A stretch of 64,000 nucleotides of DNA from Alteraurantiacibacter buctensis. Its GTDB lineage: Bacteria > Pseudomonadota > Alphaproteobacteria > Sphingomonadales > Sphingomonadaceae. The stretch is from positions 186,001 to 250,000 of the forward strand of contig NZ_WTYV01000003.1 in assembly GCF_009827655.1 (NCBI RefSeq), in the 5' to 3' direction. Position numbers and translations under genes: made by a program. This document shows, in pieces, positions 1,228 through 28,140 of this stretch. Below the pieces are notes generated by a model. The model worked only from the letters and a program-made list of their open reading frames with translations, did not search any database and had not been told where the DNA came from. Position 1 is the first letter of the stretch, and each line of letters opens with the position of its first letter.

Positions 1228-3585
1228 ATGCGTATCACCAAGAGATCGATCCTGCTTGCCGGTTGCGGCATTGCGGCGCTGGCCATGCCGGCGCACGCCC
1301 AGGACAACGCTGAGGAAGAGGATGTCATCGTCGTTACTGCGCAGAACCGCGCGCAGGATGTGACTGACGTGCCGATCGCGATCGACGTGGTCGGCGGCGA
1401 GGAACTCGCCAATGAAGGCTTCACCGATGCCAACGACCTGAGCCAGATCGCTCCGGCGGTGCAGGTGATCCAGGACCAGGGCACGGTGAAGATCACCCTG
1501 CGCGGCATCGGCACCACCTCGAACGACGAGGCGCAGGACACCTCGGTCGTGGCCAATATCGATGGCGAATACATCAACCGCCCGAACGTGCTGGGCGTGG
1601 CGATCTTCGATCTGGAGCGCGTGGAGGTTCTGCGCGGCCCGCAAGGCACGCTGTATGGCCGCAACTCCACTGCCGGTGCGATCAATTTCATCACCCGCAA
1701 GCCGGGCGATGAGCTGGGCGCCAATGTCTCGCTGTCGCTGGGCAACTACAGCGCCCTGCGCGTGGATGCCGGTGTTGACGTGCCGCTGGCCGATGGCCTG
1801 GGCCTGCGTGTTGCCGGCTTCAAGGACTCGCGCGACGGCTATGTCGATCATCCCGCCGGCTACGGCTTCGGTCCGTTCCCGCGGTTCGGCGGCGGCCAGT
1901 CGGACGATAACTCGTCCTATGGTGGCCGTGCGACGCTGGCGTTCGACGATGGTGGCCCGTTCTCGGCCAATATCCAGTTCGAATATGCCGATCGGCAGTT
2001 CACGCCGCAGGCCTTCGCGGCGGCTGACCTGAATTCCGGCGGGCGGGCTCCGGCCGGTCCGGGTTGCAACCGCGACGGCTATACCCGCGTGGCCACGGCC
2101 TATGCGCAGACGCTGTGCGTGCCCAACCAGACAACGTTCCTGGAAACCCTGGATCGGTCCGAATACGCCTCGCCGGGCTTCGGCCTGGGCCGCATCGGTG
2201 ACGAGACCTGGGCGCTGCGCGGCCGCATTGCCTACGAGTTCAGCGATGCCGCAACCCTCAGCTACATCGCAGGCTATCGCGATTTCTCGGAAGACACCGG
2301 CACCTTCGTGACCCTGCCGGTTTCCTACCGCAGCTTCAACTGGCTGGGTGAAGCCCAGACGCAGAGCCACGAACTGCGCCTGAACGGCGATATCAGCGGC
2401 ATCATTTACCAGGTTGGCGGCTTCTACTTCAAGGAAGAGCAGCAGAGCGAAAGTGGCTTCTTCGTGCCGATCGGCGCGAACGGCACCTACCTCAGCTACT
2501 TCGGTCGCGACGTGTCGAGCGACAGCCTGTCGGCCTTTGGCCAGGTCGAAGTGCCGCTGGGCGATACGCTGACCGCAGTCGGCGGCATTCGTTACACTGA
2601 CAACTCGCGCTCGGCGATCTATGACAATGCCAGCCCGTTCGGTGCCGGTCCGCCCGACGCCGGGCTGTTCAACGCTGGCCCTTCGCGCAAGACCTTCTCC
2701 ACCCTGCGCTATGCCACCCGCCTCAACCTGGGCAGCGATGATGACAAGATTACCTGGCTGGCCGGCCTGAACTGGCAGCCGAATGCCGATACGCTGATCT
2801 ATGCCAAGGTTTCGACCGGCTTCAAGGGTGGCGGCTTCGACTCGGTCGGCACCTATGATCCGGAATCGAACACCGCCTATGAAGCCGGCGCCAAGCTGAC
2901 CTTCGGCCCGAACGGCAACTTCCAGTTCAATCTGGGCGGCTTCTACTATGATTACACCGGCCTTCAGGTCTCGGTGCTGCTCGACACCACAGTCGGCGGC
3001 CAGACCTTCAATGCCGGTGCGGCCACCATCTGGGGGCTGGAAGCCGAAGGCGTGTTCGATTTCGAGCAGGGCACCACGATCGACTTCGCGGTGAACTACC
3101 TCAATGCCACCTATGACGAGCTGTTTGCCCAGTTCAACGTGTACACCGTTCCTGGCACCGGCACCGACGTCAACGGCGTGGGCGATCTCGATCCCACCAC
3201 CGCCGGCGTGCAGCAGCCCAACTTTGCAGGCAACACCGCGCCGTTCTCGCCCGAATGGGTGATCCGGGCGGGTATCCAGCATGAGCTGGACCTTGGTTCG
3301 GCCGGTAGCCTGACAGCTGGCGCCAGCACCACCTACAAGAGCAGCTACTTCACCGACTTCTACAACTACAACGATGGCCGCCAGGTCGCCTTCTTCCAGA
3401 CCGATCTGTCGCTGCAGTGGCGCGATCCGGGTGACCGGGCCGGCGTGCAGCTGTTCGTCCGCAACCTCGAGAACAACCGCCCGCTGACCTACGGTTCGTT
3501 CGTTTCGGCTGGTCCGGACGATATCTTCAACTGGCAGTTCGGCACGCCGCGCACCGTGGGCATCCGCTTCTCGCTGGACTACTAA
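1228..3585 (+). CDS. TonB-dependent outer-membrane receptor
   Basis: A 785-residue receptor. I chose the ATG at 1228 because it has a GGGAGGAA ribosome site 5-10 bases upstream and opens a clean signal peptide (MRITKRSILLAGCGIAALAM, cleavage after AHA-Q). Residues about 30-150 are the plug domain (VIVVTAQNRAQDVTDVPIAI, then ERVEVLRGPQGTLYGRNSTA). The rest is the 22-strand barrel, ending in the aromatic-rich TVGIRFSLDY. Such receptors in sphingomonads import large aromatic or glycosylated substrates using TonB energy. It is followed 82 bp later by a sugar isomerase, a symporter and a nucleoside-hydrolase-like gene, which suggests a glycoside substrate, but the ligand cannot be read from sequence. 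Confidence 0.95.
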   Translation: MRITKRSILLAGCGIAALAMPAHAQDNAEEEDVIVVTAQNRAQDVTDVPIAIDVVGGEELANEGFTDANDLSQIAPAVQVIQDQGTVKITLRGIGTTSNDEAQDTSVVANIDGEYINRPNVLGVAIFDLERVEVLRGPQGTLYGRNSTAGAINFITRKPGDELGANVSLSLGNYSALRVDAGVDVPLADGLGLRVAGFKDSRDGYVDHPAGYGFGPFPRFGGGQSDDNSSYGGRATLAFDDGGPFSANIQFEYADRQFTPQAFAAADLNSGGRAPAGPGCNRDGYTRVATAYAQTLCVPNQTTFLETLDRSEYASPGFGLGRIGDETWALRGRIAYEFSDAATLSYIAGYRDFSEDTGTFVTLPVSYRSFNWLGEAQTQSHELRLNGDISGIIYQVGGFYFKEEQQSESGFFVPIGANGTYLSYFGRDVSSDSLSAFGQVEVPLGDTLTAVGGIRYTDNSRSAIYDNASPFGAGPPDAGLFNAGPSRKTFSTLRYATRLNLGSDDDKITWLAGLNWQPNADTLIYAKVSTGFKGGGFDSVGTYDPESNTAYEAGAKLTFGPNGNFQFNLGGFYYDYTGLQVSVLLDTTVGGQTFNAGAATIWGLEAEGVFDFEQGTTIDFAVNYLNATYDELFAQFNVYTVPGTGTDVNGVGDLDPTTAGVQQPNFAGNTAPFSPEWVIRAGIQHELDLGSAGSLTAGASTTYKSSYFTDFYNYNDGRQVAFFQTDLSLQWRDPGDRAGVQLFVRNLENNRPLTYGSFVSAGPDDIFNWQFGTPRTVGIRFSLDY

Positions 3586-3667: not shown

Positions 3668-4432
3668 ATGCAGCTGTCGGCATGTATTGAATGGCAATTT
3701 GCGGAAGCGGGGGACGATCTGGCCGATCGCCTGCGCGCCGCCCATGCGGCCGGCCTTTCGCTGGCCGAATTTCATTTGTGGCGGGACAAGAACAGCGACG
3801 GCATTGCCGCCGCGATGGCCGATACGGGCGTCAAGCTCACCGGCATCTGCGTCGATCCGCGGCGCTCCATCGTCGATCCGGTCGAGCATGACGAGATGCT
3901 GGCCGCTGTTACCGATACGCTGACCGTGGCCCGCAAGCTCGGCTCGCCCCCGTTGATCGTCGCCTCCGGCTTCCGGGTGGAAGGGATGAGCGAGGCCGAA
4001 CACTTTGCCAACGCCGTTTCGGTCCTGAAGCAGGCCGCCGCTTTGGCCGAGGCTGCCGGCGTGATGCTGGTGCTGGAGCCGCTCAACACCGAACTGTTCG
4101 CCACCATGTACCTGGTCAGCACGAAACTGGGCCTGGATATCGTGGAAGCCGTGGACAGCCCGAACCTGCGCCTGCTCTACGACGTCTATCACAGCCGCGT
4201 AATGGGCGAGGATGTGCGCGAAGTGCTGGCGGGGCGCACCCACCTGGTGGCCCATGTGCAGGTGGCCGGCTGGCCAGGCCGCAATGAGCCGGGCACCGGC
4301 GATCTCGACTATGCCGAGGTGATGCGAGTGCTGGCGGACCTGTGTTACACCGGCCCGATCGGCCTCGAATACTTCCCCACAGTGGACAGCGTGACCTCCA
4401 TCGCGCGTGCGCGGGAAGCGCTCGGTGGCTGA
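3668..4432 (+). CDS. Sugar isomerase/epimerase, hydroxypyruvate-isomerase-like TIM barrel
   Basis: A 254-residue protein of the xylose-isomerase-like TIM-barrel superfamily, of usual length for the Hyi/IolI-type group. The metal-ligand landmarks are present in order: Glu in LVLEPLN, Asp in LLYDVYHS, His in VAHVQVAG and Glu in IGLEYFP. The stretch GRNEPGTGDLDY is typical of hydroxypyruvate-isomerase-like members. Family members isomerise or epimerise keto sugars with a divalent metal. It overlaps the next gene by 8 bases, so the two are translated together. The actual substrate is unknown; a keto-sugar released from a glycoside fits the surroundings. Confidence 0.85.
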   Translation: MQLSACIEWQFAEAGDDLADRLRAAHAAGLSLAEFHLWRDKNSDGIAAAMADTGVKLTGICVDPRRSIVDPVEHDEMLAAVTDTLTVARKLGSPPLIVASGFRVEGMSEAEHFANAVSVLKQAAALAEAAGVMLVLEPLNTELFATMYLVSTKLGLDIVEAVDSPNLRLLYDVYHSRVMGEDVREVLAGRTHLVAHVQVAGWPGRNEPGTGDLDYAEVMRVLADLCYTGPIGLEYFPTVDSVTSIARAREALGG

Positions 4433-5750
4433 GGCTGCTGTTGCTGGCCAGCGCCTGTCGCTGGCAGAGCGCCTCAGCTACGGCTTTGGCGATTTCGGCT
4501 TCAGCCTTGCCTACAACATGGCGAGCGGTTTCCTGCTCTATTACTACACCAATGTGGTGGGCCTACCGGCGACGGCGGTGGGAGTGATCTTTCTAACCGC
4601 CCGGCTGATGGACGCGGTGATCGACATCCTGGTGGGCATCGCGGTTGACCGTACCCAAAGCCGCTGGGGCCGCACGAGGCCCTACTTCCTGTTCACCGCC
4701 ATTCCCTATGCGATCATGTCCGTGGCGGTCTTTGCCGTGCCGGACTGGGGGCTGAACGCCCAGCTCGTCTATGCCTTCATCACCTTCAAGGCGCTGGGTA
4801 TTTTGATGAGCCTGGGGTCCATTCCCTACACCGCGCTGATGCCGATGATGACGGCGGACACCGGCGAGCGGCTGAAGCTTTCGGGGATGCGCTCGGTCGG
4901 CACGTCGGCCTCGGTGGTGTTGGGAACGGCGGCCACGCTGCCGCTGGTGGGCCTGTTCGGCGGCGGTGACGAGCAGCGTGGCTTCCTGGCCGTGGCGGCC
5001 CTGTTTGCCGGTCTGGCGCTGATCGCCGTGCTGGCCCTGTTCCGCAACTGCCGCGAGCGGATAACCGCTCCGGCGGGGGATCGGCCGCCGGTACTACCGG
5101 TGATCGGCGAAATGCTGCGCAACCGGGCGTGGATCGTCGCTTTCCTGTCGTGCCTGTTCTACTTCATCCGCTTTGGCGCGATGATGGCGGCCACGCCCTA
5201 TCTGGCGATCGACGTGCTGGGCCAGCCGTGGCTGATTTCGATCATGCTGCCGGCGGTTTCTGGCACCCTGCTACTCTCGGCCTTCATCGCCCCGCCGATC
5301 CTGGCGCGCACGGGCATCCGCAACGGCTGCCTGGGGATTTTCGCGGTGTCTGCCGTGCTGTTCCTGCTGCTGCCGCTGGCGGAGCAGAACACTACCCTGT
5401 TCCTGGCGATCTACATCGCTGCGGCGCTGGTCACCTCGCTGACCATCACCGCTGCCTTCACCATGATCGCAGGTACGGTCGACTATCACGAGTGGAAGCA
5501 TGGCACCCGCAACGAAGGCGTGCTGTCCGCCGGTGTCAGCCTGGCCACCAAGGTGGGCATGGCGATCGGCTCTGCCGGGGTCGCCTTCCTGCTGGGCTGG
5601 GTGGACTATCAGCCCGATGCGGTGACCGAAGTGGCGCGCCAGGCCATCCGCTGGTCCTATTATGGCGGAGCCGCCGTGTTGCTGGCGATCCAGGGCGTGG
5701 TGGTGTGGTTCTGGCCGATGGACGGGGAATGGAAGGGAAGCTCTGCATGA
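4425..5750 (+). CDS. GPH-family sugar:cation symporter (MelB/XynB-like MFS)
   Basis: About 441 residues with 12 hydrophobic segments. The hallmarks of the glycoside-pentoside-hexuronide family are present: LSYGFGDFGFSLAYNMASGF at the start, YYYTNVVGLPATAVGVIFLT, and DAVIDILVGIAVDRTQSRWG-RPY with the conserved acidic residues. A GTG at 4425 overlapping the upstream stop, with GGAAG ahead, is the likely start; a GTG six codons earlier is possible. Family members import sugars or glycosides across the inner membrane with Na+ or H+. It sits between the isomerase and the nucleoside-hydrolase-like gene (ATGA overlap), so it probably carries the sugar that they process. Confidence 0.88.
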   Translation: MAEAAVAGQRLSLAERLSYGFGDFGFSLAYNMASGFLLYYYTNVVGLPATAVGVIFLTARLMDAVIDILVGIAVDRTQSRWGRTRPYFLFTAIPYAIMSVAVFAVPDWGLNAQLVYAFITFKALGILMSLGSIPYTALMPMMTADTGERLKLSGMRSVGTSASVVLGTAATLPLVGLFGGGDEQRGFLAVAALFAGLALIAVLALFRNCRERITAPAGDRPPVLPVIGEMLRNRAWIVAFLSCLFYFIRFGAMMAATPYLAIDVLGQPWLISIMLPAVSGTLLLSAFIAPPILARTGIRNGCLGIFAVSAVLFLLLPLAEQNTTLFLAIYIAAALVTSLTITAAFTMIAGTVDYHEWKHGTRNEGVLSAGVSLATKVGMAIGSAGVAFLLGWVDYQPDAVTEVARQAIRWSYYGGAAVLLAIQGVVVWFWPMDGEWKGSSA

Positions 5751-7278: not shown

Positions 7279-8307
7279 ATGGCCATCAAGCGGGGCGTCA
7301 GCCTCTATTCCTACCAGAACGAGACCTTTACGGGGAAAATGACCCTGGAGGATTGTATCCGCACCAGCGCCGAACTGGGTGCCAAGGGGATCGAGGTGAT
7401 CGGCGAACAGAGCTTCTGGGGCTGGCCGGAATATGCGGTGGACCCCGCGGCCATCGCCAACTGGCACGGCCTGATTGCGAAGTACGATTGCGTTCCCGTC
7501 AGCCATGACTTCATGCTCGATTACAAGCGCTTCAAGGGCCGCATCATGTCGGTCGAGGAGCAGGTGGCCAGCGTGCGGCGCGATATTGAATTCGGCGCCC
7601 AGCTGGGGGTGAAATACCTGCGCGCGCTGGTCTCTATCTCGCCGGAAGTGCTGGTGGCCGCAGCGCCCTACGCCGAGGAGAAGGGCCTCAAGATCCTGAT
7701 CGAGGTCCATGCACCCCTGCACTTCGATCACCCATGGATCGTGCGCCACGCCGAAGCCTTCGAAAAGAGCGGATCGGATGCGCTGGGCTTCCTGCCCGAT
7801 ATGGGCATGTTCCTCCACGCCTTCCCGCCGGTGTGGTACGAGAAGTTCCTGCGCATGGGCGTGCCGAAGAATATCGCCGACTACATCGTCAAGGCTTACG
7901 AAGACCGCACCCTGTCCGAATACGTGGTGCAGGCCGTACGCGACATGGGGGCGGAAGGCCCGGCGCTGGGCATGGTGGAAACGCTGCGCCACAATGCCGC
8001 TTTCGAGCCGAAGCGGATGCTGGACTACATGCCCCGCATCCACAACATCCACGGCAAGTTCTACGAGATTACCGATGATTACGTGGAACCCTCGATCCCC
8101 TATGACCAGATCACCGCCGTGCTGAAGCAGGGCGGCTATGATGGCTACATCTGTTCGGAATACGAGGGCAACCGCTGGATCGAGGATGCGCAAGAGCCCG
8201 ATAGCGTCGAGCAGGTCCGCCGCCAGCAGGTGATGCTGGCCCGCCTGCTGGGCGAGCCCGAAGACCCCAGGATCACAACCCCGGCCTATGCCGTGGCTGC
8301 CGAATAA
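7279..8307 (+). CDS. C-glycoside deglycosidase alpha-subunit-like TIM-barrel protein
   Basis: 342 residues from the ATG at 7279. It is a xylose-isomerase-like TIM barrel whose metal-site residues can be placed: Glu142 (LIEVHAP), Asp174 (LPDMGMF), His255/His258 (RIHNIHGKFYE) and Glu294 (CSEYEGN). The start MAIKRGVSLYSYQNE and the segment FWGWPEYAVDP resemble the alpha subunits (CarC/DfgA/DgpC type) of C-glycoside deglycosidases, which cleave the carbon-carbon bond of 3-keto-C-glucosides with a Mn2+-type metal. The decisive support is the next gene, 14 bp downstream, which matches the obligate beta subunit. No signal peptide, so cytoplasmic. Substrate unknown. A plain sugar-phosphate isomerase is the alternative. 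Confidence 0.8.
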   Translation: MAIKRGVSLYSYQNETFTGKMTLEDCIRTSAELGAKGIEVIGEQSFWGWPEYAVDPAAIANWHGLIAKYDCVPVSHDFMLDYKRFKGRIMSVEEQVASVRRDIEFGAQLGVKYLRALVSISPEVLVAAAPYAEEKGLKILIEVHAPLHFDHPWIVRHAEAFEKSGSDALGFLPDMGMFLHAFPPVWYEKFLRMGVPKNIADYIVKAYEDRTLSEYVVQAVRDMGAEGPALGMVETLRHNAAFEPKRMLDYMPRIHNIHGKFYEITDDYVEPSIPYDQITAVLKQGGYDGYICSEYEGNRWIEDAQEPDSVEQVRRQQVMLARLLGEPEDPRITTPAYAVAAE

Positions 8308-8321
8308 GGAGTGCCCCGACA

Positions 8322-8714
8322 ATGATGGACAACAAGATGATCGTCGAGGGCAGCCTTGCCAACTACGCCGAAGGCGGCGTGGTCAAGGGCTTCCAGTTCC
8401 TGGGCCGCCTGCCGTATTACCGGGGACTGGGTCTCTCGATGGTGGAAGACATTGCCGTGGAGATCGACGGCGAGACGGTGGCGCGCGAGGATGTGCGCTT
8501 CAGCGTGCGGGGCAAGACCTATACGCTCGACGAGATGGAAACCGTCTACGATGATCGCTGGAACTTCGGTGAGAAGGCGACCATCATCGTGCTGAAGGAC
8601 GGTGGGCTGGCTCATGGGGAGCATCAGGTGGGCATGGCGGTGCGCTATCGCGTCTCCTACCTGCCCTTCGTGCCGACCACCAGGTTCACGAAGACGCTGG
8701 CGCTGGCCGCCTGA
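8322..8714 (+). CDS. C-glycoside deglycosidase beta-subunit-like protein (formerly DUF6379)
   Basis: A 130-residue, beta-rich protein without signal or membrane segment. Landmarks of the family are GRLPYYRGLGLSMVEDIAVE, the -DGE-V- segment, VRFSVRGKTYTLDEM, RWNFGEKATIIVLK, GGLAHGEHQV and the closing VSYLPF. I recognise this as the small subunit of C-deglycosylation enzymes (CarB/DfgB/DgpB type), which packs on the TIM-barrel subunit and helps complete the active site. It lies 14 bp after the alpha gene and 42 bp before a Gfo/Idh/MocA gene, the same trio reported for C-glycoside operons. This gene is the strongest single clue to the cluster's role. Start: tandem ATGs at 8322/8325 after GGAG. 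Confidence 0.82.
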   Translation: MMDNKMIVEGSLANYAEGGVVKGFQFLGRLPYYRGLGLSMVEDIAVEIDGETVAREDVRFSVRGKTYTLDEMETVYDDRWNFGEKATIIVLKDGGLAHGEHQVGMAVRYRVSYLPFVPTTRFTKTLALAA

Positions 8715-8756
8715 CAAACCGCCAAAACCGCGCAATAATGCGGGTTTGGAACGAAG

Positions 8757-9887
8757 ATGGAGGATCGCTTGGAGAGGCGTTTGCGCATGGGCATGATCGG
8801 CGGCGGACCGGGGGCCTTCATCGGCCCGGTGCACCGCTTTGCTGCCGAGCTGGACCGCGAGATCGAACTGGTGGCGGGGGTGTTCTCGTCTGACCCGGAT
8901 CGCTCGCGCGCAGCCGCCGGGCAGTATCGTATCGATCCCGAACGCGCCTATCCCGACCTGCCGACCATGTTCGCCGCCGAGAAGGCGCGGGCGGACGGGA
9001 TCGACTTTGTCTCCATTGTCACTCCCAATCACAATCACCTGCCATCGGCCCGTGCGGCGCTGGCGGCCGGCCTGCCGGTGATGACCGACAAGCCGCTGAC
9101 CGCCACGCTGGCCGAAGCGCAGGAACTGGCGGGGCTAGTTGCGACAGCTGGCCTGCCGCTGGGCGTCACCTTCACCTACACCGGCTATCCGCTGGTGCGC
9201 GAGATGAAGGCGCGCATTGCCGCCGGGGCCATCGGGCCCTTGCGCAAGGTGGTGGTTGAATACCCGCAGGGCTGGCTGTCGCAACCGGCAGAGGGCAAGC
9301 AGGCCGAATGGCGCGTCGATCCCGCGCGCGCAGGGGCGGGCGGCTGCATTGGCGATATCGGCGTTCACGCCTTCAACCTGTCGGAATTCGTTACTGGCCA
9401 GAAGGTGACGCGCTTGCTGGCGGATCTTGCTGCCGTGGTGCCGGGCCGGGCGCTGGATGACGACTGTTCGATCCTGCTCCGCTTCGCCAATGGCGCGCGC
9501 GGTGTGCTGCTGGCCAGCCAGATCGAGGTGGGCGAACTCAACGGACTGCGGATCCGCTGTTATGGCGAATTCGGCGGCATAAGCTGGAAGCAGGAGGAGC
9601 CCAACAGCTTCACCCAGCACCACGCCGATGGCCGAACCGAGATTGTCCGCGCCGCCGATGCCTCGCTCGGCCCTTGGGCTGCCGGGCGTACCCGCACGCC
9701 GGGCGGCCATCCGGAGGGCTACCTGGAAGCCTTCGCCAATATCTACCGCGATTTCGCCGCCGTGTTGCGCGGCGAGGATGCGCCGCTGCTCCCCGGCATT
9801 GCCGAAGGGCTGCGTGGCATGACCTTCATCGATACCGCCGTCCGCGCCAGCGCCGCCAATGCGGGCTGGGTGGATCTGGCCGACTGA
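8757..9887 (+). CDS. Gfo/Idh/MocA-family NAD(P)-dependent oxidoreductase
   Basis: A 376-residue cytoplasmic dehydrogenase. The N-terminal Rossmann fold shows MGMIGGGPGAFIGPVHR (about residues 11-27) and TPNHNHLPSARAALAAG. The family motif with catalytic lysine is MTDKPLTATLAEA, and GGCIGDIGVHAFNL supplies the downstream Asp/His pair. Family members oxidise or reduce sugar carbons, including C3 of glucosides (as in DgpA, YcjS and related enzymes). Set between the deglycosidase pair and another isomerase, it could interconvert glucose and 3-keto-glucose units, either making the 3-keto substrate or reducing the released 3-keto sugar. A later in-frame ATG at 8787 would drop the first ten residues. 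Confidence 0.9.
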   Translation: MEDRLERRLRMGMIGGGPGAFIGPVHRFAAELDREIELVAGVFSSDPDRSRAAAGQYRIDPERAYPDLPTMFAAEKARADGIDFVSIVTPNHNHLPSARAALAAGLPVMTDKPLTATLAEAQELAGLVATAGLPLGVTFTYTGYPLVREMKARIAAGAIGPLRKVVVEYPQGWLSQPAEGKQAEWRVDPARAGAGGCIGDIGVHAFNLSEFVTGQKVTRLLADLAAVVPGRALDDDCSILLRFANGARGVLLASQIEVGELNGLRIRCYGEFGGISWKQEEPNSFTQHHADGRTEIVRAADASLGPWAAGRTRTPGGHPEGYLEAFANIYRDFAAVLRGEDAPLLPGIAEGLRGMTFIDTAVRASAANAGWVDLAD

Positions 9888-9901
9888 CCGAGGATCGAGA
9901 C

Positions 9902-10957
9902 ATGAAGACCATCAAGGGCCCCGCCATCTTCCTCGCCCAGTTTGCGGGTGACGAGGCGCCATTCAATTCGTTCGACGCGATCTGCAAGTGGGTTGCGGGC
10001 ATGGGCTACAAGGGCGTGCAGGTGCCCAGTTGGGACGGCCGCCTGTTCGACCTCGCCAAGGCAGCGGAAAGCCAGGACTATTGCGACGAGATTGCGGGCG
10101 TTGCTGCCAGCCACGGCCTGCAAATCACCGAGCTTTCCACCCACCTGCAGGGCCAGCTTGTCGCCGTGCACCCCGCCTATGACGCGCAGTTCGATGGCTT
10201 TGCCGCACCGCACGTGCGCGGCAACCCCAAGGCGCGCCAGGAATGGGCGGTGGAGCAGGTCAAGATGGCCGGCACTGCCAGCAAGCGGCTGGGCCTGACG
10301 GCCCATGCCAGCTTTTCGGGCGCGCTGGCCTGGCCCTACCTCTACCCCTGGCCGCAGCGTCCGGCGGGTCTGGTGGAGGATGCCTTCGACGAACTGGCGC
10401 GGCGGTGGACGCCGATCCTCGACCATTTCGACGAGTGCGGAGTGGACATCGCCTATGAGATCCATCCGGGCGAGGACCTGCATGATGGCGTCACCTTCGA
10501 GATGTTCCTGGAACGGGTGAACAACCACCCGCGGGCCAATATTCTCTATGATCCCAGTCACTTCGTGCTGCAGTGCCTGGACTACCTGGATTACATCGAC
10601 ATCTATCACGAGCGCATCAAGTGCTTCCACGTGAAGGATGCCGAGTTCAATCCCACCGGTCGGCAGGGCGTCTACGGCGGCTATCAGGGCTGGGTCGAAC
10701 GGGCCGGCCGATTCCGCAGCCTGGGTGACGGGCAGGTCGATTTCTCGTCCATTTTCAGCAAGATGGCGCAATACGATTTCCCCGGCTGGGCCGTGCTGGA
10801 ATGGGAGTGCGCGCTGAAGCACCCCGAGGCTGGTGCGGCGGAAGGGGCCCCGTTTATCGCCCAGCACATCATCCGCGTGACCGAGCGCGCGTTCGACGAT
10901 TTTGCCGACAGCGGCAGCGATCGCGACCTGAACCGGCGGCTGATGGGGCTGGACTGA
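9902..10957 (+). CDS. Sugar isomerase/epimerase, xylose-isomerase-like TIM barrel
   Basis: 351 residues, 14 bp after the dehydrogenase. The metal-site landmarks are Glu in AYEIHPGED, Asp in LYDPSHFVLQ, His in CFHVKDAEF and Glu in VLEWECAL. The N-terminus (FLAQFAGDEAPFNSFDAICK, MGYKGVQVPSWD) belongs to a group of isomerases routinely found beside Gfo/Idh/MocA genes. It is only distantly similar to the deglycosidase alpha subunit and much less so to the isomerase at 3668, so the window has three different members of the fold. A role in isomerising the 3-keto sugar after deglycosylation fits the operon but is inferred. Confidence 0.85.
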   Translation: MKTIKGPAIFLAQFAGDEAPFNSFDAICKWVAGMGYKGVQVPSWDGRLFDLAKAAESQDYCDEIAGVAASHGLQITELSTHLQGQLVAVHPAYDAQFDGFAAPHVRGNPKARQEWAVEQVKMAGTASKRLGLTAHASFSGALAWPYLYPWPQRPAGLVEDAFDELARRWTPILDHFDECGVDIAYEIHPGEDLHDGVTFEMFLERVNNHPRANILYDPSHFVLQCLDYLDYIDIYHERIKCFHVKDAEFNPTGRQGVYGGYQGWVERAGRFRSLGDGQVDFSSIFSKMAQYDFPGWAVLEWECALKHPEAGAAEGAPFIAQHIIRVTERAFDDFADSGSDRDLNRRLMGLD

Positions 10958-10960
10958 AGG

Positions 10961-10990
10961 GGGTCTAACGGGGTCTAACCAGGCCTAACG
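10961..10990 (+). repeat. Three 10-bp direct repeats (GGGTCTAACG type)
   Basis: Three adjacent decamers read GGGTCTAACG, GGGTCTAACC and AGGCCTAACG. They fill the gap between the isomerase stop and the GST ribosome site at exactly one helical turn per unit. They could be a recent slippage product or a protein-binding array. Confidence 0.6.
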
Positions 10991-11008
10991 CTGCCAAGGG
11001 AGGGCACG

Positions 11009-11695
11009 ATGGCCGAGACAGTGCTCTATTTCGCCCCGCAAACCTGCGCCCGGGTGCCGCTGGTGGCGCTGGAGGAGGCGGGTGTGGATTTCACCGTCCA
11101 CACTGTGGCTTTCATGGCCGGCGAACACCGCCAGCCGGACTACCTGGCCCGCAACCCCAAGGGCAAGGTTCCGGCGCTGGCGATTGACGGGCTGGTGCTG
11201 ACCGAGAATGTCGCCATTGCCGATTACCTGGCCGAGCGACACCCGGAAGCCGCCCTGCTGCCGCCTGCAAGCACCCCGGCAGCGCGGGCGGAGCGACTGG
11301 CGGACCTGGCCTTCTGCGCCGCCACCCTGCACCCCATCGTCACCCGCATCCGCATGGCCCCCTTTATTGCCGGGCCGGCCAGCGCCAAGGCCGTGTACGA
11401 TGCCGCTTGCCAGGCGATGGACCCCAACTTCGCCATGATCGAGGCGCGGCTGGCGCAGCGGACCTGGTGGTATGGCGAGTGGTCGGTGATGGATGCCTAC
11501 CTCAACTGGGCGTTCTTCCGCGTGGCCGGCGCGCGCTACGATGTCAGCCGCTTCCCCGCTTTCGCCCGGCATGACGAACTGATGCAGGAACGCCCAAGCT
11601 ATCGCCGGGCCATGCTGCGCGAACGGCAGAGCGAGGCGGACCTGGTGGCCCGTGGCCTGTTGTTCACGCCGCCCGATCCGGCGACGTTCAGCTAG
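11009..11695 (+). CDS. Glutathione S-transferase family protein
   Basis: 228 residues with the two-domain GST plan. The N-terminal thioredoxin-like domain has YFAPQTCARVPLVALEEAGV (Cys/Arg/Ser-type activation region), NPKGKVPALAIDG and the glutathione-contact motif TENVAIADYLAERHP. The C-terminal helical domain follows from about residue 95. It is the last gene of the deglycosidase operon (51 bp gap) and converges with the thioredoxin-like gene, overlapping it by 4 bases. In aromatic catabolism GSTs open ether bonds, isomerise ring-fission products or conjugate reactive aglycones; which applies here cannot be told from sequence. Confidence 0.88.
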   Translation: MAETVLYFAPQTCARVPLVALEEAGVDFTVHTVAFMAGEHRQPDYLARNPKGKVPALAIDGLVLTENVAIADYLAERHPEAALLPPASTPAARAERLADLAFCAATLHPIVTRIRMAPFIAGPASAKAVYDAACQAMDPNFAMIEARLAQRTWWYGEWSVMDAYLNWAFFRVAGARYDVSRFPAFARHDELMQERPSYRRAMLRERQSEADLVARGLLFTPPDPATFS

Positions 11696-12309
11696 CCCCA
11701 GCTTGGGTCCTTGCCCGCCTTCCACTTGATGTTGCAGCCCGCGCTGGGCACCTGCGGTTGCGGGGCGGGCTGGCCTGCCAGCACGGCATCGGCGGCGCGG
11801 CGCATGTCCTCGCCAGTCACCGGCACAGAGGTGCGCCAGGTCTCTGTCCCCTCCATCGGCGGGTGCCCAAGGCCAGGGCGGCTGGGATCGAACTGGCCGC
11901 AATATGCCAGCTTCATCTGGCCATCGTAGAGGAAGAAATCGGGCGTGCAGATTGCGCCATATGCCAGCGCCACGTCCTGCGTGGCATCGAACAGGTAGGG
12001 GAACGGGAAGTCCATCGCCTGCGCCAGCCGGGCCATTTCCTCCGGCGCATCATCGGGAAAATCCGCCGGATCGTTGCTGCTGATCGCTACCACCTGCAGC
12101 CCTTGCGGCATATAGTCCCGGGCAAAGTCCACCAACCCCGGCAGGATGTGCTGCACGAATGGGCAATGGTTGCAGATGAAGGCCAGCAGTAGGCCCTTGC
12201 CCTGGGTGAACTCGTCCAGCCGCCGCACCTGGCCGTGGGTGTCGGTCAGCGCAAAGGGACGCGGGGGCTGGCCATAATCGACTTGTCGCGAAAGCTTGAG
12301 CACGGGCAT
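11692..12309 (-). CDS. Thioredoxin-like/AhpC-TSA-type protein with a CNHC site
   Basis: 205 residues from the ATG at 12309, which follows a CGGAGA site. The thioredoxin fold is visible: PFALTDTHGQVRRLDEF, then FICNHCPFVQHILPGL with a CxxC-like CNHC pair near residue 47, SSNDPADFPDD, and the cis-proline region GAICTPDFFLYD. The closing GCNIKWKAG is a recognisable signature of this redoxin group. There is no signal peptide. It is divergent from the GMC dehydrogenase operon, sharing the gap with the dyad at 12323-12338, so both are probably co-regulated. The role may be redox maintenance; the substrate is unknown. Confidence 0.82.
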   Translation of the reverse strand: MPVLKLSRQVDYGQPPRPFALTDTHGQVRRLDEFTQGKGLLLAFICNHCPFVQHILPGLVDFARDYMPQGLQVVAISSNDPADFPDDAPEEMARLAQAMDFPFPYLFDATQDVALAYGAICTPDFFLYDGQMKLAYCGQFDPSRPGLGHPPMEGTETWRTSVPVTGEDMRRAADAVLAGQPAPQPQVPSAGCNIKWKAGKDPSWG

Positions 12310-12322
12310 TCTCCGCTGGAAA

Positions 12323-12338
12323 TAGAATGAGCATTCTG
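12323..12338. promoter_or_regulatory. Operator-like dyad TAGAAT-GAGC-ATTCTG (site 2)
   Basis: The second copy of the 16-bp dyad, 14 bp before the redoxin ATG on one side and 42 bp before the GMC operon start on the other. It differs from site 1 at one arm base and in the spacer. Confidence 0.65.
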
Positions 12339-12379
12339 ATACGTCTCGCGCCAACAGTCAAACAAATGAGACAGGATCA

Positions 12380-13024
12380 ATGGCCACCGGAACAGGTGCA
12401 GGCTGGAACCGCCGCGAATTCGTCGGCGCGGCGGGGCTCTTGGCAATCGCGCTGGGTCTTCCCGGCTGCGTATCGGCATCGGCTGGTGCCGCCGATCTGG
12501 CCGCTGCGCTACCCCCTGAAGAGGCTCCCAATGATCGGCAACTGGCCATGCTGCGCGAGGTATCGCAGATCGTCATTCCGGCCACTGACACCCCCGGCGC
12601 AGGGGATGCGGAAGTGGGCGCCTTCGTGGCTATGGCGCTGGCCCACGGCATGGAAGCCTCGCGCGCGCCGCTGCCGCCTGCCGCGCAGACCTTTGCCTCC
12701 ACCCGGTTCCTGCGGGCCGACGGGTCCTTGCGCTATGTCGACTGGCTGGATGATGTGCTGGGCGCCGGCTTCCTTGAGGAAGCGCCCCCTGCGCGGCTGG
12801 AGAAGGTCCGCGCGCTGGATGCAGCCGCCTATGCGCAGAATGCCGGCGCGCACCCATGGCGCAAGGTCAAGGCGCTGATCCTGCTGGGCTATTACACGTC
12901 CGAAATCGGCGGCTCGCAGGAACTGCAATACGCCCCGCTGCCGGGCCGTTTCGATCCTGCCGTGCCGGTGCAGCCGGGCGAGCGGGCCTATTCCAACGAG
13001 TGGACCGGGGTGGAGTTCGGCTGA
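12380..13024 (+). CDS. Tat-exported gluconate 2-dehydrogenase subunit 3 family protein
   Basis: A 214-residue protein with a twin-arginine signal (WNRREFVGAAGLLAIALGLP) followed by a Cys in GCVSAS that could also act as a lipobox. The body (LREVSQIVIPATDTPGAGDA; FVAMALAHGM; HPWRKVKALILLGYYTSEIG; the closing EWTGVEFG) matches the small subunit of membrane-bound FAD dehydrogenases of the gluconate-dehydrogenase type. In that family the small subunit carries the signal that exports the co-folded GMC subunit. It overlaps the next gene in a TGATG arrangement, so they form one complex. No cytochrome c subunit is adjacent. Confidence 0.85.
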   Translation: MATGTGAGWNRREFVGAAGLLAIALGLPGCVSASAGAADLAAALPPEEAPNDRQLAMLREVSQIVIPATDTPGAGDAEVGAFVAMALAHGMEASRAPLPPAAQTFASTRFLRADGSLRYVDWLDDVLGAGFLEEAPPARLEKVRALDAAAYAQNAGAHPWRKVKALILLGYYTSEIGGSQELQYAPLPGRFDPAVPVQPGERAYSNEWTGVEFG

Positions 13025-14715
13025 TGGCTGAAAATTACGATTTTGACGCCATAGTGGTCGGTTCGGGCATCACCGGCGGCTGGTCGGCCAAGCAACTGAC
13101 ACAGGCCGGCCTGAAGGTGCTGATGGTGGAGCGCGGGCGCGAGATCATTCACGGACGCGACTATGCCACCGAGATGAAGGCCCCGTGGGACATGCCGTTC
13201 CGGGGCAAAGGCGATCCGGAGGTTTTCGCCAGCGAACATGCGGTGCAGCGCCTGAACCGCCATTTCACCGAGTTCACGCAGAACCATTTCGTCAGCGATC
13301 GCGAGAATCCCTACCAGACAGGCGAGAATACCGCGTTCAACTGGTTTCGCAGCTACCAGCTCGGCGGTCGCTCGCTCACCTGGGGGCGGCAGTCCTATCG
13401 CTGGTCGGACTACGATTTCGATGCCAACCGGCGCGACGGGCACGGCACCGACTGGCCGATCCGCTATGCCGATCTTGCGCCTTGGTATGACCTGGTGGAG
13501 GAATTCATCGGCGTATCGGGCTCGATGGAGGGCGTGCCGTCCTTGCCCGATGGCAAGTTCCAGCCGCCGATGGCACTTAACGCGGTGGAACAGGCCCTGC
13601 GTGAACGGATCGGCGAGCGCTGGCCCGAACGCCGCCTGATGATCGGCCGCACTGCCAACCTGACGCAGGCCAAACCCGGTCGCGCACCGTGCCAGAACCG
13701 GGCGATCTGCCCGCGCGGCTGTTCGTTCGGGGCCTATTTCTCCACCCAGTCCAGCACGCTGCCCGCCGCGCGGGCCACCGGCAACCTGACCGTGGTGACC
13801 GATGCCGTGGTGGAGAAGCTGGACTATGATCCAGCCACCCGCCGCGTCACCGGTGTGCGCTGGGTGGGCCGCAATGGCGCAGCCAGCGGCAGCGCCACGG
13901 CGCGCATGGTGTTCCTGAATGCGGGCAGCTTCAATTCGGTCCAGGTGCTGCTGAACTCTGCCAGCGAGGCCAATCCGCACGGCCTGGCAAACACCAGCGG
14001 TGTGCTGGGCACGCACATCATGGACCACCCCACCACGCTGTCTGCCGCCGCGCTGGTTCCGGGGTTCGAGGGGATCACCACTTTCGGCAACCGCCCCACG
14101 GGCGCGGTGATCGCCCGCTATCGCAATACGGACCAGATGGACGGCGTGGGCCATACCCGCGGCTTCTCCTACCAGGGCGGGGCGCTGCAATCGGCCTGGG
14201 TGCGCGGCATGCGTGAGCCCGGTGTGGGCGAGGATTTCAAGGCGAACCTGCGCGGCCCCGGCCCCTGGCGGGTGGTGCTGGTGGCTTTTGCCGATTGCAT
14301 GCCGCGGGCCAGCAACCGCCTGACGCTGGACCGCACGAGGGTGGACGCCAACGGCATCCCGCAACTGAAGATCGACTTTGCCTATGGTGCGGAGGAGCAC
14401 GCCGCGCTGGCCCAGGCCAAGGCCGATGCGGCCGAGATGCTGACCCACGCGGGCGGGCAGGTAATCATGGGCTTTGACCGGCCCGGCGCGGGCGGCTCGG
14501 CCATTCACGAGATGGGCGGCGCGCGCATGGGCCACGATCCGGCCACCAGCGTGCTCAACAAGTGGAGCCAGGCGCACGATATCCCCAACCTGTTCGTCAC
14601 CGACGGGGCGCAGATGAGCAGTTCGGCCTGCCAGAACCCCTCGCTGACCTACATGGCGCTGACTGCGCGGGCGGCGGATCACGCCGTGCAGTTATTGCGC
14701 GAAGGGGCCATCTAG
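13024..14715 (+). CDS. GMC-family FAD-dependent sugar/glycoside oxidoreductase
   Basis: 563 residues. The FAD-binding dinucleotide fold starts at AIVVGSGITGGWSAKQL (about residues 9-25). SLTWGRQSYRWSDYDF and NRAICPRGCSFGAYFSTQ are typical of the sugar-oxidising branch. The active-site pair is His495 (AIHEMGGARMG) and Asn538 (CQNPSLTYMAL), the His/Asn layout of pyranose 2-oxidase and of FAD glucoside/C-glycoside 3-oxidoreductases. It has no signal of its own and is probably exported with the Tat-bearing small subunit. I infer oxidation of the sugar at C3, the step that 3-keto-glycoside hydrolases and C-deglycosidases need. The alternative is oxidation of another polyol. Confidence 0.82.
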   Translation: MAENYDFDAIVVGSGITGGWSAKQLTQAGLKVLMVERGREIIHGRDYATEMKAPWDMPFRGKGDPEVFASEHAVQRLNRHFTEFTQNHFVSDRENPYQTGENTAFNWFRSYQLGGRSLTWGRQSYRWSDYDFDANRRDGHGTDWPIRYADLAPWYDLVEEFIGVSGSMEGVPSLPDGKFQPPMALNAVEQALRERIGERWPERRLMIGRTANLTQAKPGRAPCQNRAICPRGCSFGAYFSTQSSTLPAARATGNLTVVTDAVVEKLDYDPATRRVTGVRWVGRNGAASGSATARMVFLNAGSFNSVQVLLNSASEANPHGLANTSGVLGTHIMDHPTTLSAAALVPGFEGITTFGNRPTGAVIARYRNTDQMDGVGHTRGFSYQGGALQSAWVRGMREPGVGEDFKANLRGPGPWRVVLVAFADCMPRASNRLTLDRTRVDANGIPQLKIDFAYGAEEHAALAQAKADAAEMLTHAGGQVIMGFDRPGAGGSAIHEMGGARMGHDPATSVLNKWSQAHDIPNLFVTDGAQMSSSACQNPSLTYMALTARAADHAVQLLREGAI

Positions 14716-14926: not shown

Positions 14927-15946
14927 ATGCCCGCATACGTCCGCAACCTTTGGTACATGGCCGCGTGGGAGCATGAGGTGCCCGATGGCGGGATGCTCAG
15001 CCGCAAGCTGCTCGACCAGGCGTGGCTGGTCCACCGGCTGGAAAGCGGTGCCTATGCCATGCTGGAGGACCGCTGCCCGCACCGCTTCGTGCCGCTATCG
15101 ATGGGCAGGAAGCAGGGCGATGTGGTCCATTGTCGCTATCACGGCCTGGGCTTCGGGCCGGACGGGGCCTGTGTCCACACGCCGTTTCCCGCAAGCCCGC
15201 CCGGCCACGTGAAGGCCGCGACCATGCCGGTGGTCGCCCGCTATCGCGCGCTGTGGTTCTGGCCGGGCGATCCGGCGCTGGCAGACCCGAGCCTGATCCC
15301 TGACTTCGCCTTCCTCGACAGCTACAGGCCGATGACCCGCGGCCACCTGGTGATGCAGGGCAATTACGAACTGGTGACCGACAACCTGATGGACCTGACC
15401 CATGCCGAGTTTCTCCACGTGGAGACCTTCGGGGTGAACGGCTCGCTGTTCGAAAGCGGCGCGCAGACCGTGCAACAGGAAGCTGACGGGGCGATCTGGA
15501 ACAAGTGGACCATGACCGATGCCCGTGCGCCGGCTTGGGCCAAACCAGTGCTGGGCGAGGGCGCAAGGGTGGACCAGAAGCTGCACATGCGCTGGCACGC
15601 CCCTGCTTCGATGGCGCTGCTGGTGGAGATCGGCAAGGCTGGCACGGCTTATGGCGTGCACCTGCTGCCGCCGATGCTGAACCCGCACATCATCACGCCC
15701 GAGACGCAAGGGTCATCGCACTATTTCTATGATCACGAGCCGACCGAGCAGGCCCGCGACATGGCCATGCAGGTCTTCGTGGAGGAGGACGAGCCGATGA
15801 TCGAGGCGGCGCAGGCAGCGCTGGGTGAAACCGACTTCTGGGATGCACGGCCCGCCATCCTGAAGACCGATGCCGCCGCCATCCGCTGCCGCCGTGCGCT
15901 GATGCAGCTGCGCCGGCGCGAGGCGGGCGAGGCCGAAGCCCCCTAG
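14927..15946 (+). CDS. Rieske non-heme iron oxygenase alpha subunit, VanA-type
   Basis: 339 residues from the ATG after AAGAGGAGA; a longer in-frame reading to 14750 lacks family similarity. The Rieske [2Fe-2S] ligands are in CPHRF (about residue 50) and CRYHGL. The mononuclear iron motif is NLMDLTHAEFLH, a D-x2-H-x4-H pattern at about residue 155. Length and the N-terminal RNLWYMAAWEHEV match the vanillate O-demethylase/monooxygenase group, so O-demethylation or hydroxylation of a methoxylated aromatic is likely. No reductase lies beside it. The stop overlaps the convergent DUF1080 gene by 4 bases. One of three paralogs in the window. Confidence 0.9.
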   Translation: MPAYVRNLWYMAAWEHEVPDGGMLSRKLLDQAWLVHRLESGAYAMLEDRCPHRFVPLSMGRKQGDVVHCRYHGLGFGPDGACVHTPFPASPPGHVKAATMPVVARYRALWFWPGDPALADPSLIPDFAFLDSYRPMTRGHLVMQGNYELVTDNLMDLTHAEFLHVETFGVNGSLFESGAQTVQQEADGAIWNKWTMTDARAPAWAKPVLGEGARVDQKLHMRWHAPASMALLVEIGKAGTAYGVHLLPPMLNPHIITPETQGSSHYFYDHEPTEQARDMAMQVFVEEDEPMIEAAQAALGETDFWDARPAILKTDAAAIRCRRALMQLRRREAGEAEAP

Positions 15947-25876: not shown

Positions 25877-25950
25877 GGTGCAGAACTCTCCCTGAATCTA
25901 TCTCGTGTGCCTGACTATGCGGGGAGGCAGGCGCCAGCAACGGCATTGGG

Positions 25951-25958: not shown

Positions 25959-26045
25959 TAGTCATCCATCCTATCCATTGGTCAGCGAGGCGGGGCGGCT
26001 GCATTCAGCGGCGCGATCACTGTCACAGCATTCGGGAGTTTCATC

Positions 26046-28129: not shown

Positions 28130-28140
28130 GGAGAGAGACA

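What the first reader, a model, noticed from the sequence alone, without database searches (positions are those of the whole stretch)
7279..14715. Candidate C-glycoside degradation system in a sphingomonad-like genome
Seen: a metal-site TIM barrel (E142, D174, H255/258, E294) followed within 14 bp by a 130-residue protein with the signatures of the C-deglycosidase beta subunit, then a Gfo/Idh/MocA dehydrogenase and another isomerase; nearby a Tat-exported small subunit is coupled to a GMC enzyme with a His495/Asn538 pair. Known: C-glycoside deglycosidases (CarBC, DfgAB, DgpBC) cleave 3-keto-C-glucosides made by GMC or Gfo/Idh enzymes. Inference: this cluster oxidises C-glycosyl aromatics at C3 and cleaves the C-C bond, then feeds the aglycone to the Rieske, flavin monooxygenase and dioxygenase genes downstream. 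Combining a membrane-type GMC/subunit-3 oxidase, a TonB receptor and a full aromatic pathway with this pair appears unusual.
Basis: partly seen in the sequence, partly recalled or inferred. Interest (0 to 1): 0.88.

Follow-up and report, generated by a model that had tools for sequence, protein, structure and literature searches.

The report
Sphingomonad C-glycoside breakdown gene cluster
The cluster very probably lets a sphingomonad-type bacterium detach glucose from plant compounds in which the sugar is bound by a hard-to-break carbon-carbon bond, using a known two-part enzyme combined with a different oxidising partner than in the studied cases, and then eat both halves.

Summary
8322-8714 is a C-glycoside deglycosidase (CGD) beta subunit (Pfam CGDB, 145.9 bits, cut-off 27.6). 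7279-8307 is the alpha subunit: 48.9% identical to the solved chain 8qvc_A, whose partner chain is a CGDB-type protein, with all seven metal and catalytic residues. The "other isomerase" 9902-10957 is 73.7% identical to the solved 2-hydroxy-3-keto-glucal hydratase, the next pathway step; with the Gfo/Idh gene this makes a cleave-hydrate-reduce cassette. The GMC enzyme is not of the CarA/PsG3Ox oxidase kind; it resembles fructose dehydrogenase and glycoside 3-dehydrogenase (GlycDH), with a Tat-type partner. Orthologues (at least 70% identity) occur in 14 of 17 family genomes that have CGDB and in 0 of 281 without. Better aglycone candidates are a dioxygenase ending about 1 kb before the window (16 of 17 vs 21 of 281) and hydrolase 21775-22935 (16 of 17 vs 22 of 281), of gene classes known from flavonoid A-ring (ifc/fde) pathways. 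Verdict: a new variant of a known kind. Substrate, C- versus O-glycoside preference and periplasmic oxidation remain untested.

The parts
7279..8307 (+). CGD alpha subunit (metal-dependent TIM-barrel lyase)
   Evidence: Best solved match 8qvc_A, 357 bits; DgpC-type 7bvr_A 139 bits; 48.9% identity to 8qvc_A; E142, H144, D174, H258, K260, E294, E296 all present; AlphaFold2 model mean pLDDT 85.5 with helices 184-249 inserted between two barrel strands, as expected of the CGE lid
8322..8714 (+). CGD beta subunit
   Evidence: Pfam PF19906 CGDB 145.9 bits, E 5e-43; solved CGDB-type chains incl. 8qvc_B, 7bvr_B (DgpB), 7bvs_B (DfgB), 7dnm_B; Tyr33 falls on PuCGE Tyr39-beta by the net-gapless 7-118/13-124 match to 7bvr_B
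8757..9887 (+). Gfo/Idh/MocA oxidoreductase (start 8757 or 8787), likely 3-keto-glucose reductase
   Evidence: Pfam GFO_IDH_MocA; best solved match 3v5n 338 bits; adjacent to the hydratase in 41 of 41 loci that hold both
9902..10957 (+). 2-hydroxy-3-keto-glucal hydratase
   Evidence: 8ro4_A 612 bits, 73.7% identity over 350 aligned columns; the only match at E 1e-5 in this genome
11009..11695 (+). Glutathione S-transferase-like, role unknown
   Evidence: GST_N
12380..13024 (+). Small subunit (Sub3), Gluconate_2-dh3, twin-arginine N-terminus
   Evidence: PF13618 73.3 bits; one of 3 copies in the genome, 2 of which lie within about 6 kb of CGD pairs
13024..14715 (+). GMC FAD dehydrogenase, predicted glycoside 3-dehydrogenase
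   Evidence: Best solved match is the fructose dehydrogenase large subunit (150 bits); pyranose/C-glycoside oxidases match only at the C-terminus; His495 in an IHEMGxAR context; orthologue in 14 of 17 CGDB+ and 0 of 281 CGDB- genomes
1195..3585 (+). TonB-dependent receptor, candidate outer-membrane uptake
   Evidence: Plug and TonB_dep_Rec; homologue in 41 of 80 CGD loci
3668..4432 (+). Hydroxypyruvate-isomerase-like TIM barrel, role unknown
   Evidence: AP_endonuc_2; best solved matches 3ngf and 1k77 (the Hyi label is recalled); AtOGE (8BVK) not among 31 hits; in 43 of 80 CGD loci
4407..5750 (+). GPH-type (MFS_2) symporter, candidate (keto-)glycoside importer
   Evidence: TIGR00792 287 bits; in 53 of 80 CGD loci
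14927..15946 (+). Rieske VanA-type oxygenase, role unknown
   Evidence: VanA_C and Rieske on the ORF from 14750; in 15 of 80 CGD loci
21775..22935 (-). Alpha/beta hydrolase, candidate aglycone C-C hydrolase
   Evidence: Solved matches 8qd7 Yellowish-green 1-like protein 72 bits and 2jbw 2,6-dihydroxy-pseudo-oxynicotine hydrolase 58 bits; at 62% or more in 16 of 17 CGDB+ vs 22 of 281 CGDB- genomes
24441..25876 (-). Cupin and fumarylacetoacetate-hydrolase family genes, candidate aglycone pathway
   Evidence: Cupin_2, FAA_hydrolase; homologues (36% and 55%) downstream of the cluster in Croceicoccus marinus

Best explanation
This is a four-step oxidation - elimination - hydration - reduction pathway for aryl glucosides, most likely C-glucosyl polyphenols. 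Inferred order: the TonB receptor admits the glycoside. The GMC/Tat-subunit dehydrogenase oxidises glucose C3 (probably in the periplasm, passing electrons to the respiratory chain). A GPH/MFS porter imports the 3-keto-glycoside. The cytoplasmic CGD alpha/beta enzyme uses a divalent metal and His144 to abstract the C2 proton, while beta Tyr33 stabilises the phenolate, and beta-eliminates the aglycone, leaving 2-hydroxy-3-keto-glucal. The hydratase adds water to give 3-keto-glucose, and the Gfo/Idh enzyme reduces it to glucose. The aglycone is then degraded by a linked flavonoid-type A-ring-cleavage set (VOC dioxygenase about 1 kb upstream of the window, hydrolase 21775, cupin, FAA hydrolase). 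Shown here: sequence identity of the CGD pair and hydratase, catalytic residues, recurrent linkage and co-occurrence. Inferred: substrate, compartments, electron acceptor, direction of the Gfo reaction, roles of the transport and aglycone genes.
For: CGD alpha and beta identity. Hydratase at 73.7% identity. Beta gene next to alpha, same strand, in 79 of 80 relatives' loci; the one without lies on a contig that ends 117 bases after alpha. Within about 10 kb of CGD: Sub3 in 45, GMC in 44, HYD in 42, Gfo in 41 of 80. GMC orthologue (>=70%) in 14 of 17 CGDB+ and 0 of 281 CGDB- genomes; HYD (>=75%) 14 of 17 vs 1 of 281; upstream VOC dioxygenase (>=64%) 16 of 17 vs 21 of 281; hydrolase (>=62%) 16 of 17 vs 22 of 281. 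Croceicoccus marinus plasmid: CGDa 80%, CGDb 77%, Gfo 76%, HYD 85%, Sub3 48%, GMC 76%, VOC 67%, hydrolase 64%, cupin 36%, FAA hydrolase 55% within one 20-kb run. GlycDH plus a TAT partner oxidises C3 of puerarin and nothofagin, with orientin, vitexin and isovitexin as further substrates (PMC10628242 section 6 and passages of 18). FAD-GO His493 context matches His495 here.
Against: No activity data exist for any of these proteins in what I saw. A characterised CGE also cleaves 3-keto-O-glucosides (PMC10628242 section 14). Gfo-HYD-Sub3-GMC (76, 81, 48 and 76% identical) occurs without a CGD in the 25 kb shown of a Novosphingobium capsulatum plasmid, and HYD with a Gfo gene but no annotated GMC within 7-8 kb in six of six Rhizobiaceae plasmid regions opened, so those enzymes are not specific to C-glycosides. 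Three CGDB+ genomes lack the GMC orthologue. No cytochrome c family was among the Pfam matches of the genes I scanned beside GMC/Sub3. Only 18 of 67 loci with full flanks hold both GMC and HYD within about 10 kb. Identity thresholds in the co-occurrence tests were chosen after seeing the lists; at looser thresholds GMC is 14 of 17 vs 32 of 281 and HYD 17 of 17 vs 29 of 281. PurABC (O2-dependent oxidase type) homologues are reported in Pseudomonadota too (PMC12724307 sections 36-37), so this oxidant is not the only one there.
Confidence: 0.72

Rival explanations
1. A generalist O-glucoside system: the same four steps, but the physiological substrates are phenolic or flavonoid O-glucosides (or rhamno-glucosides), and C-glycoside cleavage is marginal.
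For: PuCGE cleaves both 3-keto O- and C-glucosides, and O-glycosides are commoner in plants (PMC10628242 section 14). Gfo-HYD-Sub3-GMC exists without CGD nearby. A GH106 alpha-L-rhamnosidase lies in the 16 kb upstream of the window (L005).
Against: A beta subunit is present with the Tyr39-beta equivalent, whose change to Phe in PuCGE removed over 99% of C-glucoside but only part of O-glucoside activity (PMC10628242 section 12, passages). The O-specific OGE needs no beta subunit. The nearby small TIM barrel is not AtOGE-like by sequence.
Confidence: 0.25
2. The Gfo/Idh enzyme is the C3 oxidant (DgpA-like, recycling with 3-keto-glucose) and the GMC/Sub3 pair serves another sugar or glycoside.
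For: In gut bacteria DgpA (Gfo family) oxidises puerarin (PMC11239390, abstract in the listing; PMC12724307 section 37). CGD loci of Nitrospirillum, Azospirillum, Ideonella, Pelomonas, Pseudomonas and Pantoea have Gfo and HYD but no GMC/Sub3 orthologue within about 10 kb; one of them, L125, holds a 35% match to the paralogue L005_23.
Against: GMC orthologues are confined to CGDB+ genomes in the sample, 14 of 17 vs 0 of 281. Gfo is adjacent to the hydratase in all 41 loci holding both, as expected of the downstream reductase described for A. tumefaciens (PMC10628242 section 7).
Confidence: 0.2
3. The CGD pair is detached from the aglycone genes: the island is a patchwork and the nearby Rieske, monooxygenase and dioxygenase genes serve lignin-type aromatics.
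For: The extradiol dioxygenase at 33744 does not co-occur with CGD (1 of 17, the own genome, vs 10 of 281). A lignostilbene dioxygenase-like gene at 61607 is nearby. The VOC dioxygenase and the hydrolase also occur in 21 and 22 genomes without CGDB.
Against: The upstream VOC dioxygenase and the hydrolase do co-occur with CGD (16 of 17 each), are neighbours of each other in 14 of 16 CGDB+ genomes, and lie next to the cluster in Croceicoccus.
Confidence: 0.2

Closest known systems
CGD/CGE enzymes (PuCGD = DgpBC, EuCGD = Dfg, MiCGD = CarBC, AgCGD1/2, MtCGD, PurBC)
   Same: Alpha TIM barrel plus CGDB beta subunit in tandem; all metal and catalytic residues; closest solved pair 8qvc A/B
   Different: Different partners: Tat-type GMC dehydrogenase instead of DgpA or CarA/PurA/PsG3Ox; clustered with a hydratase
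Agrobacterium tumefaciens GlycDH-OGE-HYD-Gfo glucoside pathway (PMC10628242)
   Same: Same four-step logic; hydratase class; Gfo reductase; GMC dehydrogenase with TAT partner
   Different: Eliminase is the two-subunit CGD, not the unrelated single-chain OGE
FAD-GO / GlycDH glycoside 3-dehydrogenase (Rhizobium sp. GIN611, PMC4650693)
   Same: GMC fold, catalytic His in an IHEMGxAR context, TAT partner gene next door
   Different: Direct sequence relation not measured (reference sequence not held); partner gene lies upstream here, downstream there
Variovorax ifc / Herbaspirillum fde flavonoid A-ring pathway (PMC11069340)
   Same: VOC dioxygenase, FAD monooxygenase, DHPON-hydrolase-like alpha/beta hydrolase and cupin gene classes
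   Different: Split around the CGD cassette in this genome; orthology not measured

Membership tests
CGD / C-glycoside eliminase | Beta subunit of the CGDB family | tested here: met
   PF19906 145.9 bits, cut-off 27.6; solved DgpB, DfgB and AgCarC2 chains
CGD / C-glycoside eliminase | Alpha metal ligands E147/D179/H269/K271/E305 and catalytic H149/E307 (AgCGD2 numbering, PMC8563793 sections 11-12) | tested here: met
   E142/D174/H258/K260/E294 and H144/E296, all identical in the alignment to 8qvc_A and with the same local spacing as in AgCGD2
CGD / C-glycoside eliminase | Tyr39 of the beta subunit, specific for C-glycosides (PMC10628242) | tested here: met
   Tyr33, offset 6 in the 7-118/13-124 match to 7bvr_B; the residue-level alignment to that chain was not printed
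CGD / C-glycoside eliminase | TIM barrel with helical lid (common but not universal in CGEs, PMC10628242 section 8 passages) | tested here: met
   AlphaFold2 model, pTM 0.84: five helices between strands 169-174 and 257-261; comparison with solved folds could not be run
CGD / C-glycoside eliminase | Alpha/beta complex and C-C cleaving activity on 3-keto C-glycosides | not testable with these tools
   Needs protein; only alpha was modelled, no complex
2-hydroxy-3-keto-glucal hydratase (8ro4) | Sequence family membership | tested here: met
   612 bits, 73.7% identity over 350 columns; activity not testable
Pyranose/C-glycoside oxidase kind (CarA, PurA, PsG3Ox) | Full-length similarity to that GMC clade | tested here: not met
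   Only C-terminal stretches of 28-40 bits to pyranose oxidases, 8qve and 7qf8 against 150 bits over residues 59-617 of the submitted 619-residue ORF to fructose dehydrogenase
GlycDH / FAD-GO glycoside 3-dehydrogenase | Catalytic His in the IHEMG context and an adjacent TAT partner | tested here: met
   His495 in AIHEMGGAR vs the H493 mutagenesis primer in PMC4650693, translated by eye; Sub3 with RR motif ending at the GMC start
GlycDH / FAD-GO glycoside 3-dehydrogenase | Falls in the same sequence subfamily | not tested
   AEX01166.1 / WP_003515231.1 not found in the collections I searched; no C3 activity data
AtOGE (3668-4432 considered) | Sequence similarity to AtOGE 8BVK | tested here: not met
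   8BVK absent among 31 PDB matches up to E 1; a shared fold is not excluded
ifc/fde A-ring flavonoid pathway | Monooxygenase + VOC dioxygenase + DHPON-like hydrolase + cupin genes together | tested here: inconclusive
   All classes present within about 40 kb around the cassette; orthology to Ifc/Fde not measured

The most novel reading that the evidence does not exclude
Sphingomonads carry a third route of C-glycoside catabolism, different from the NAD-dependent gut route and the O2-dependent actinobacterial route: a Tat-exported respiratory GMC dehydrogenase makes the 3-keto-C-glycoside in the periplasm, a symporter imports it, CGD cleaves it in the cytoplasm, and hydratase plus reductase return glucose while an adjacent A-ring pathway consumes the flavonoid, so that C-glycosyl flavonoids are completely mineralised by one island.
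Probability: 0.42. Interest if true: 0.65.

Novelty: new variant of a known kind. Interest (0 to 1): 0.5.

Why it matters
The 2025 paper read here (PMC12724307) calls its Paenarthrobacter isolate the first soil bacterium shown to catabolise a C-glycosylated flavonoid; in the papers I saw, the proteobacterial side appears only as database homologues. The recurrence of one cassette through Sphingomonadales (best 80 of 268 detected relatives examined) points to a large, partly culturable reservoir. It offers a concrete candidate for the oxidant, names a specific hydratase and reductase, and ties deglycosylation to aglycone ring cleavage. CGDs are also of biocatalytic interest: a 2026 paper (PMC13273386, abstract read) uses a 3-keto-C-glycoside lyase to make C-glycosides.

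Tried and rejected
(1) Idea that 3668-4432 is an O-glycoside eliminase, giving paired C- and O-eliminases: not supported by sequence. (3) Finding GlycDH itself on Rhizobium/Agrobacterium plasmids: of 627 records with a GMC match, 60 were listed in the spread list; the full-length rhizobial matches listed are about 35% identical or less, and the two opened sit in other contexts. Six Rhizobiaceae HYD regions opened hold HYD and a Gfo gene but no annotated GMC within 7-8 kb; some hold a further sugar phosphate isomerase gene that I did not test as OGE. (5) Paper searches for a sphingomonad C-glycoside system in one open-licence library (20 of 26 papers listed; none; 10 of 10; 15 of 2885; 12 of 67): no such report in the listings. 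(6) C6- versus C8-glycoside preference from active-site residues: the residue after Asn239 is Ala, small as in the C6 enzymes of PMC8563793, but the aligned residue of the solved relative is Asn, so I draw no conclusion. (7) That 8qvc is MtCGD and 8ro4 the Agrobacterium hydratase is my recollection; the PDB listing gives only molecule names.

Full report
What is there. The window lies in a genome of 3.77 Mb (G000, contig C16, 186001-250000). Named relatives of the alpha subunit at 75-85% identity are Novosphingobium, Sphingomonas, Sphingobium, Blastomonas, Erythrobacter and Aurantiacibacter, with a few alphaproteobacterial MAGs filed otherwise, among them one Hyphomonadaceae, so "sphingomonad-like" is right. 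The genes run: TonB receptor 1195-3585, Hyi-like TIM barrel 3668-4432, GPH symporter 4407-5750, DoxX on the other strand, CGD alpha 7279-8307, CGD beta 8322-8714, Gfo/Idh to 9887, hydratase 9902-10957, GST 11009-11695, an AhpC-TSA gene on the other strand, small subunit 12380-13024, GMC 13024-14715, Rieske oxygenase 14927-15946. CGDB was found in 17 of 298 family genomes, own genome included, and in 0 of 14 control genomes.

CGD identity. The beta protein scores 145.9 bits against Pfam CGDB (cut-off 27.6) over the whole profile; its eight PDB matches up to E 10 begin with 8qvc_B (1.3e-21) and include the DgpB, DfgB and AgCarC2 chains. The alpha protein matches 8qvc_A at 357 bits and the DgpC-type 7bvr_A at 139 bits, with 162 identities in 331 aligned columns to 8qvc_A. 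The residues found essential in PMC8563793 (sections 8 and 11-13 read: E147, D179, H269, K271, E305, H149, E307 of AgCGD2) correspond to E142, D174, H258, K260, E294, H144 and E296. PMC10628242 reports that Tyr39 of the PuCGE beta subunit is needed for C- but much less for O-glycoside cleavage (passages of section 12, section 14); the 7-118/13-124 match with 7bvr_B puts Tyr33 there, although that residue alignment was not printed. A model of alpha (mean pLDDT 85.5, pTM 0.84) shows five helices inserted between the strands at 169-174 and 257-261, in keeping with the helical lid described for CGEs; a fold search could not be run.

The second TIM barrel. 9902-10957 is identical at 258 of 350 columns to PDB 8ro4, named 2-hydroxy-3-keto-glucal hydratase. 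PMC10628242 (section 7, read) describes an A. tumefaciens operon with a C3 dehydrogenase, an eliminase, a putative hydratase and a Gfo oxidoreductase that returns D-glucose. The window therefore has the elimination, hydration and reduction steps side by side, with the two-subunit CGD in place of the unrelated OGE.

The oxidant. The GMC protein matches fructose dehydrogenase large subunits (150 bits) and a glucose dehydrogenase (134 bits) over nearly its whole length, but pyranose and C-glycoside oxidases only at its C-terminus (28-40 bits). Its His495 lies in AIHEMGGAR; the catalytic His493 of the Rhizobium GIN611 FAD-GO sits in a GIHEMGTAR context by the mutagenesis primer printed in PMC4650693, which I translated by eye (abstract and passages read); that paper also describes an adjacent TAT partner gene. 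The same enzyme (GlycDH) oxidises C3 of puerarin and nothofagin, with orientin, vitexin and isovitexin also as substrates, at least 100-fold faster with ferricyanide than with O2 (PMC10628242 section 6). The Sub3 N-terminus has an RR motif. Periplasmic location and respiratory electron transfer are inferences. I could not measure sequence identity to GlycDH.

Conservation. A scan of genome contigs found 268 relatives of alpha, of which the best 80 were kept and examined; the patterns came from this clade, so the sample leans to near kin. Counting hits above 35% identity and 60% coverage within about 10 kb: beta 79 of 80, Sub3 45, GMC 44, HYD 42, Gfo 41, GPH symporter 53, TonB 41. Among the 67 loci with at least 9 kb on both sides: GMC 40, HYD 37, either 59, both 18, neither 8. 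Gfo and HYD are adjacent in 41 of 41, Sub3 and GMC in 43 of 43, HYD and Sub3 in 13 of 22 loci holding both. Four gammaproteobacterial (Aestuariibacter and alteromonad-type MAG) loci carry CGD with GMC about 2 kb away; Ideonella, Pelomonas, Nitrospirillum, Azospirillum, Pseudomonas and Pantoea loci carry HYD and Gfo without this GMC. A Croceicoccus marinus plasmid has GPH symporter, ThuA, CGD alpha, CGD beta, GH3, Gfo, HYD, Sub3, GMC, two MFS genes, VOC, alpha/beta hydrolase, cupin and FAA hydrolase in one stretch, with homology of the window genes measured there. Against exclusivity, Novosphingobium capsulatum has Gfo-HYD-Sub3-GMC with no CGD in the 25 kb shown, and six of six Rhizobiaceae HYD regions opened have HYD and a Gfo gene but no annotated GMC.

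Co-occurrence test. Over the same 298 genomes, CGDB+ (17, own genome included) versus CGDB- (281): GMC at 70% or more, 14 vs 0; HYD at 75% or more, 14 vs 1; the VOC dioxygenase of C16:184088-185002 (about 1-1.9 kb before the window) at 64% or more, 16 vs 21; hydrolase 21775 at 62% or more, 16 vs 22; Fisher p without the own genome 3e-20, 5e-19, 1e-14 and 2e-14; by genus GMC 10 of 11 vs 0 of 85, HYD 10 of 11 vs 1 of 85, VOC 10 of 11 vs 9 of 85. Genomes are related, so p-values overstate independence, and the VOC/hydrolase link may partly reflect a shared aromatic-degrading lifestyle.

Aglycone. The VOC protein is 457 bits from solved 3b59. The hydrolase matches 8qd7, Yellowish-green 1-like protein (72 bits), and 2jbw, 2,6-dihydroxy-pseudo-oxynicotine hydrolase (58 bits). 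VOC and hydrolase genes lie within 50 bp of each other in 14 of 16 CGDB+ genomes that have both; in this genome they are 22.8 kb apart, with the CGD cassette between them. With a cupin and an FAD_binding_3-type monooxygenase these are the gene classes named for the Variovorax isoflavone and Herbaspirillum naringenin A-ring pathways (PMC11069340 section 15 and passages). A GH106 rhamnosidase, an FGGY sugar kinase and an aldolase/SDR protein lie in the same upstream 16 kb (L005). I read this as an island for flavonoid glycosides; exact substrates are unknown.

Assessment. The finding is real and the core inference good. It is a new variant of a known kind: known enzyme families in a combination not reported in the papers I found, apparently standard in sphingomonads that have CGD. 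The main open points are C- versus O-glycoside preference and which enzyme oxidises the sugar.

Noticed in passing
L004 12864-14212 (G000:C16:162864-164212): Second CGD-like pair in the same genome (CGDB 43.9 bits), beta before alpha, alpha 30% identical to the window's, followed by a TIM barrel, ThuA, MFS, another TIM barrel and another Sub3-GMC pair; a ThuA-MFS-TIM-Sub3-GMC run is annotated in Novosphingobium sp. ES2-1.
   Followed up: partly
L006 9455-10813 (G000:C10): Third CGD pair (CGDB 119 bits), alpha 32% identical, next to an FAA hydrolase family gene; a homologue in relative G127 sits beside homologues of window genes 24441-28941 (L050).
   Followed up: partly
alignment A1, L006 and L042, L046, L054, L055 alpha subunits: In these CGD alpha relatives the metal-ligand His258 is replaced by Gln (IQAKF instead of IHGKF), which may mark a different metal site or activity.
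   Followed up: no
L005 4755-13968 (G000:C16:174755-183968): GH106 alpha-L-rhamnosidase and an aldolase/SDR protein, an FGGY kinase and an AP_endonuc_2 protein that may be a rhamnose isomerase (isomerase identity recalled, not shown), just upstream of the window.
   Followed up: partly
window 44528-49582: 1684-residue autotransporter-like protein with eight passenger-associated-transport repeats (PF12951).
   Followed up: partly
window 26046-28941: Histidinol-dehydrogenase-family protein, SDR and PF04199 cyclase in a row; homologues near a third-type CGD pair in G127 (L050) at 76-90% identity, the cyclase match being cut by the end of the stretch; function unknown.
   Followed up: partly
window 61607-63073: Lignostilbene alpha,beta-dioxygenase-like protein (474 bits, below the curated cut-off of 800).
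   Followed up: no
L137 16049-16423 and 19621-20004 (Novosphingobium aromaticivorans pNL2): Plasmid pNL2 carries two CGD-type pairs about 2-3 kb apart with DUF1080 and GMC genes; the second matches this genome's L004 pair (alpha 91%).
   Followed up: partly
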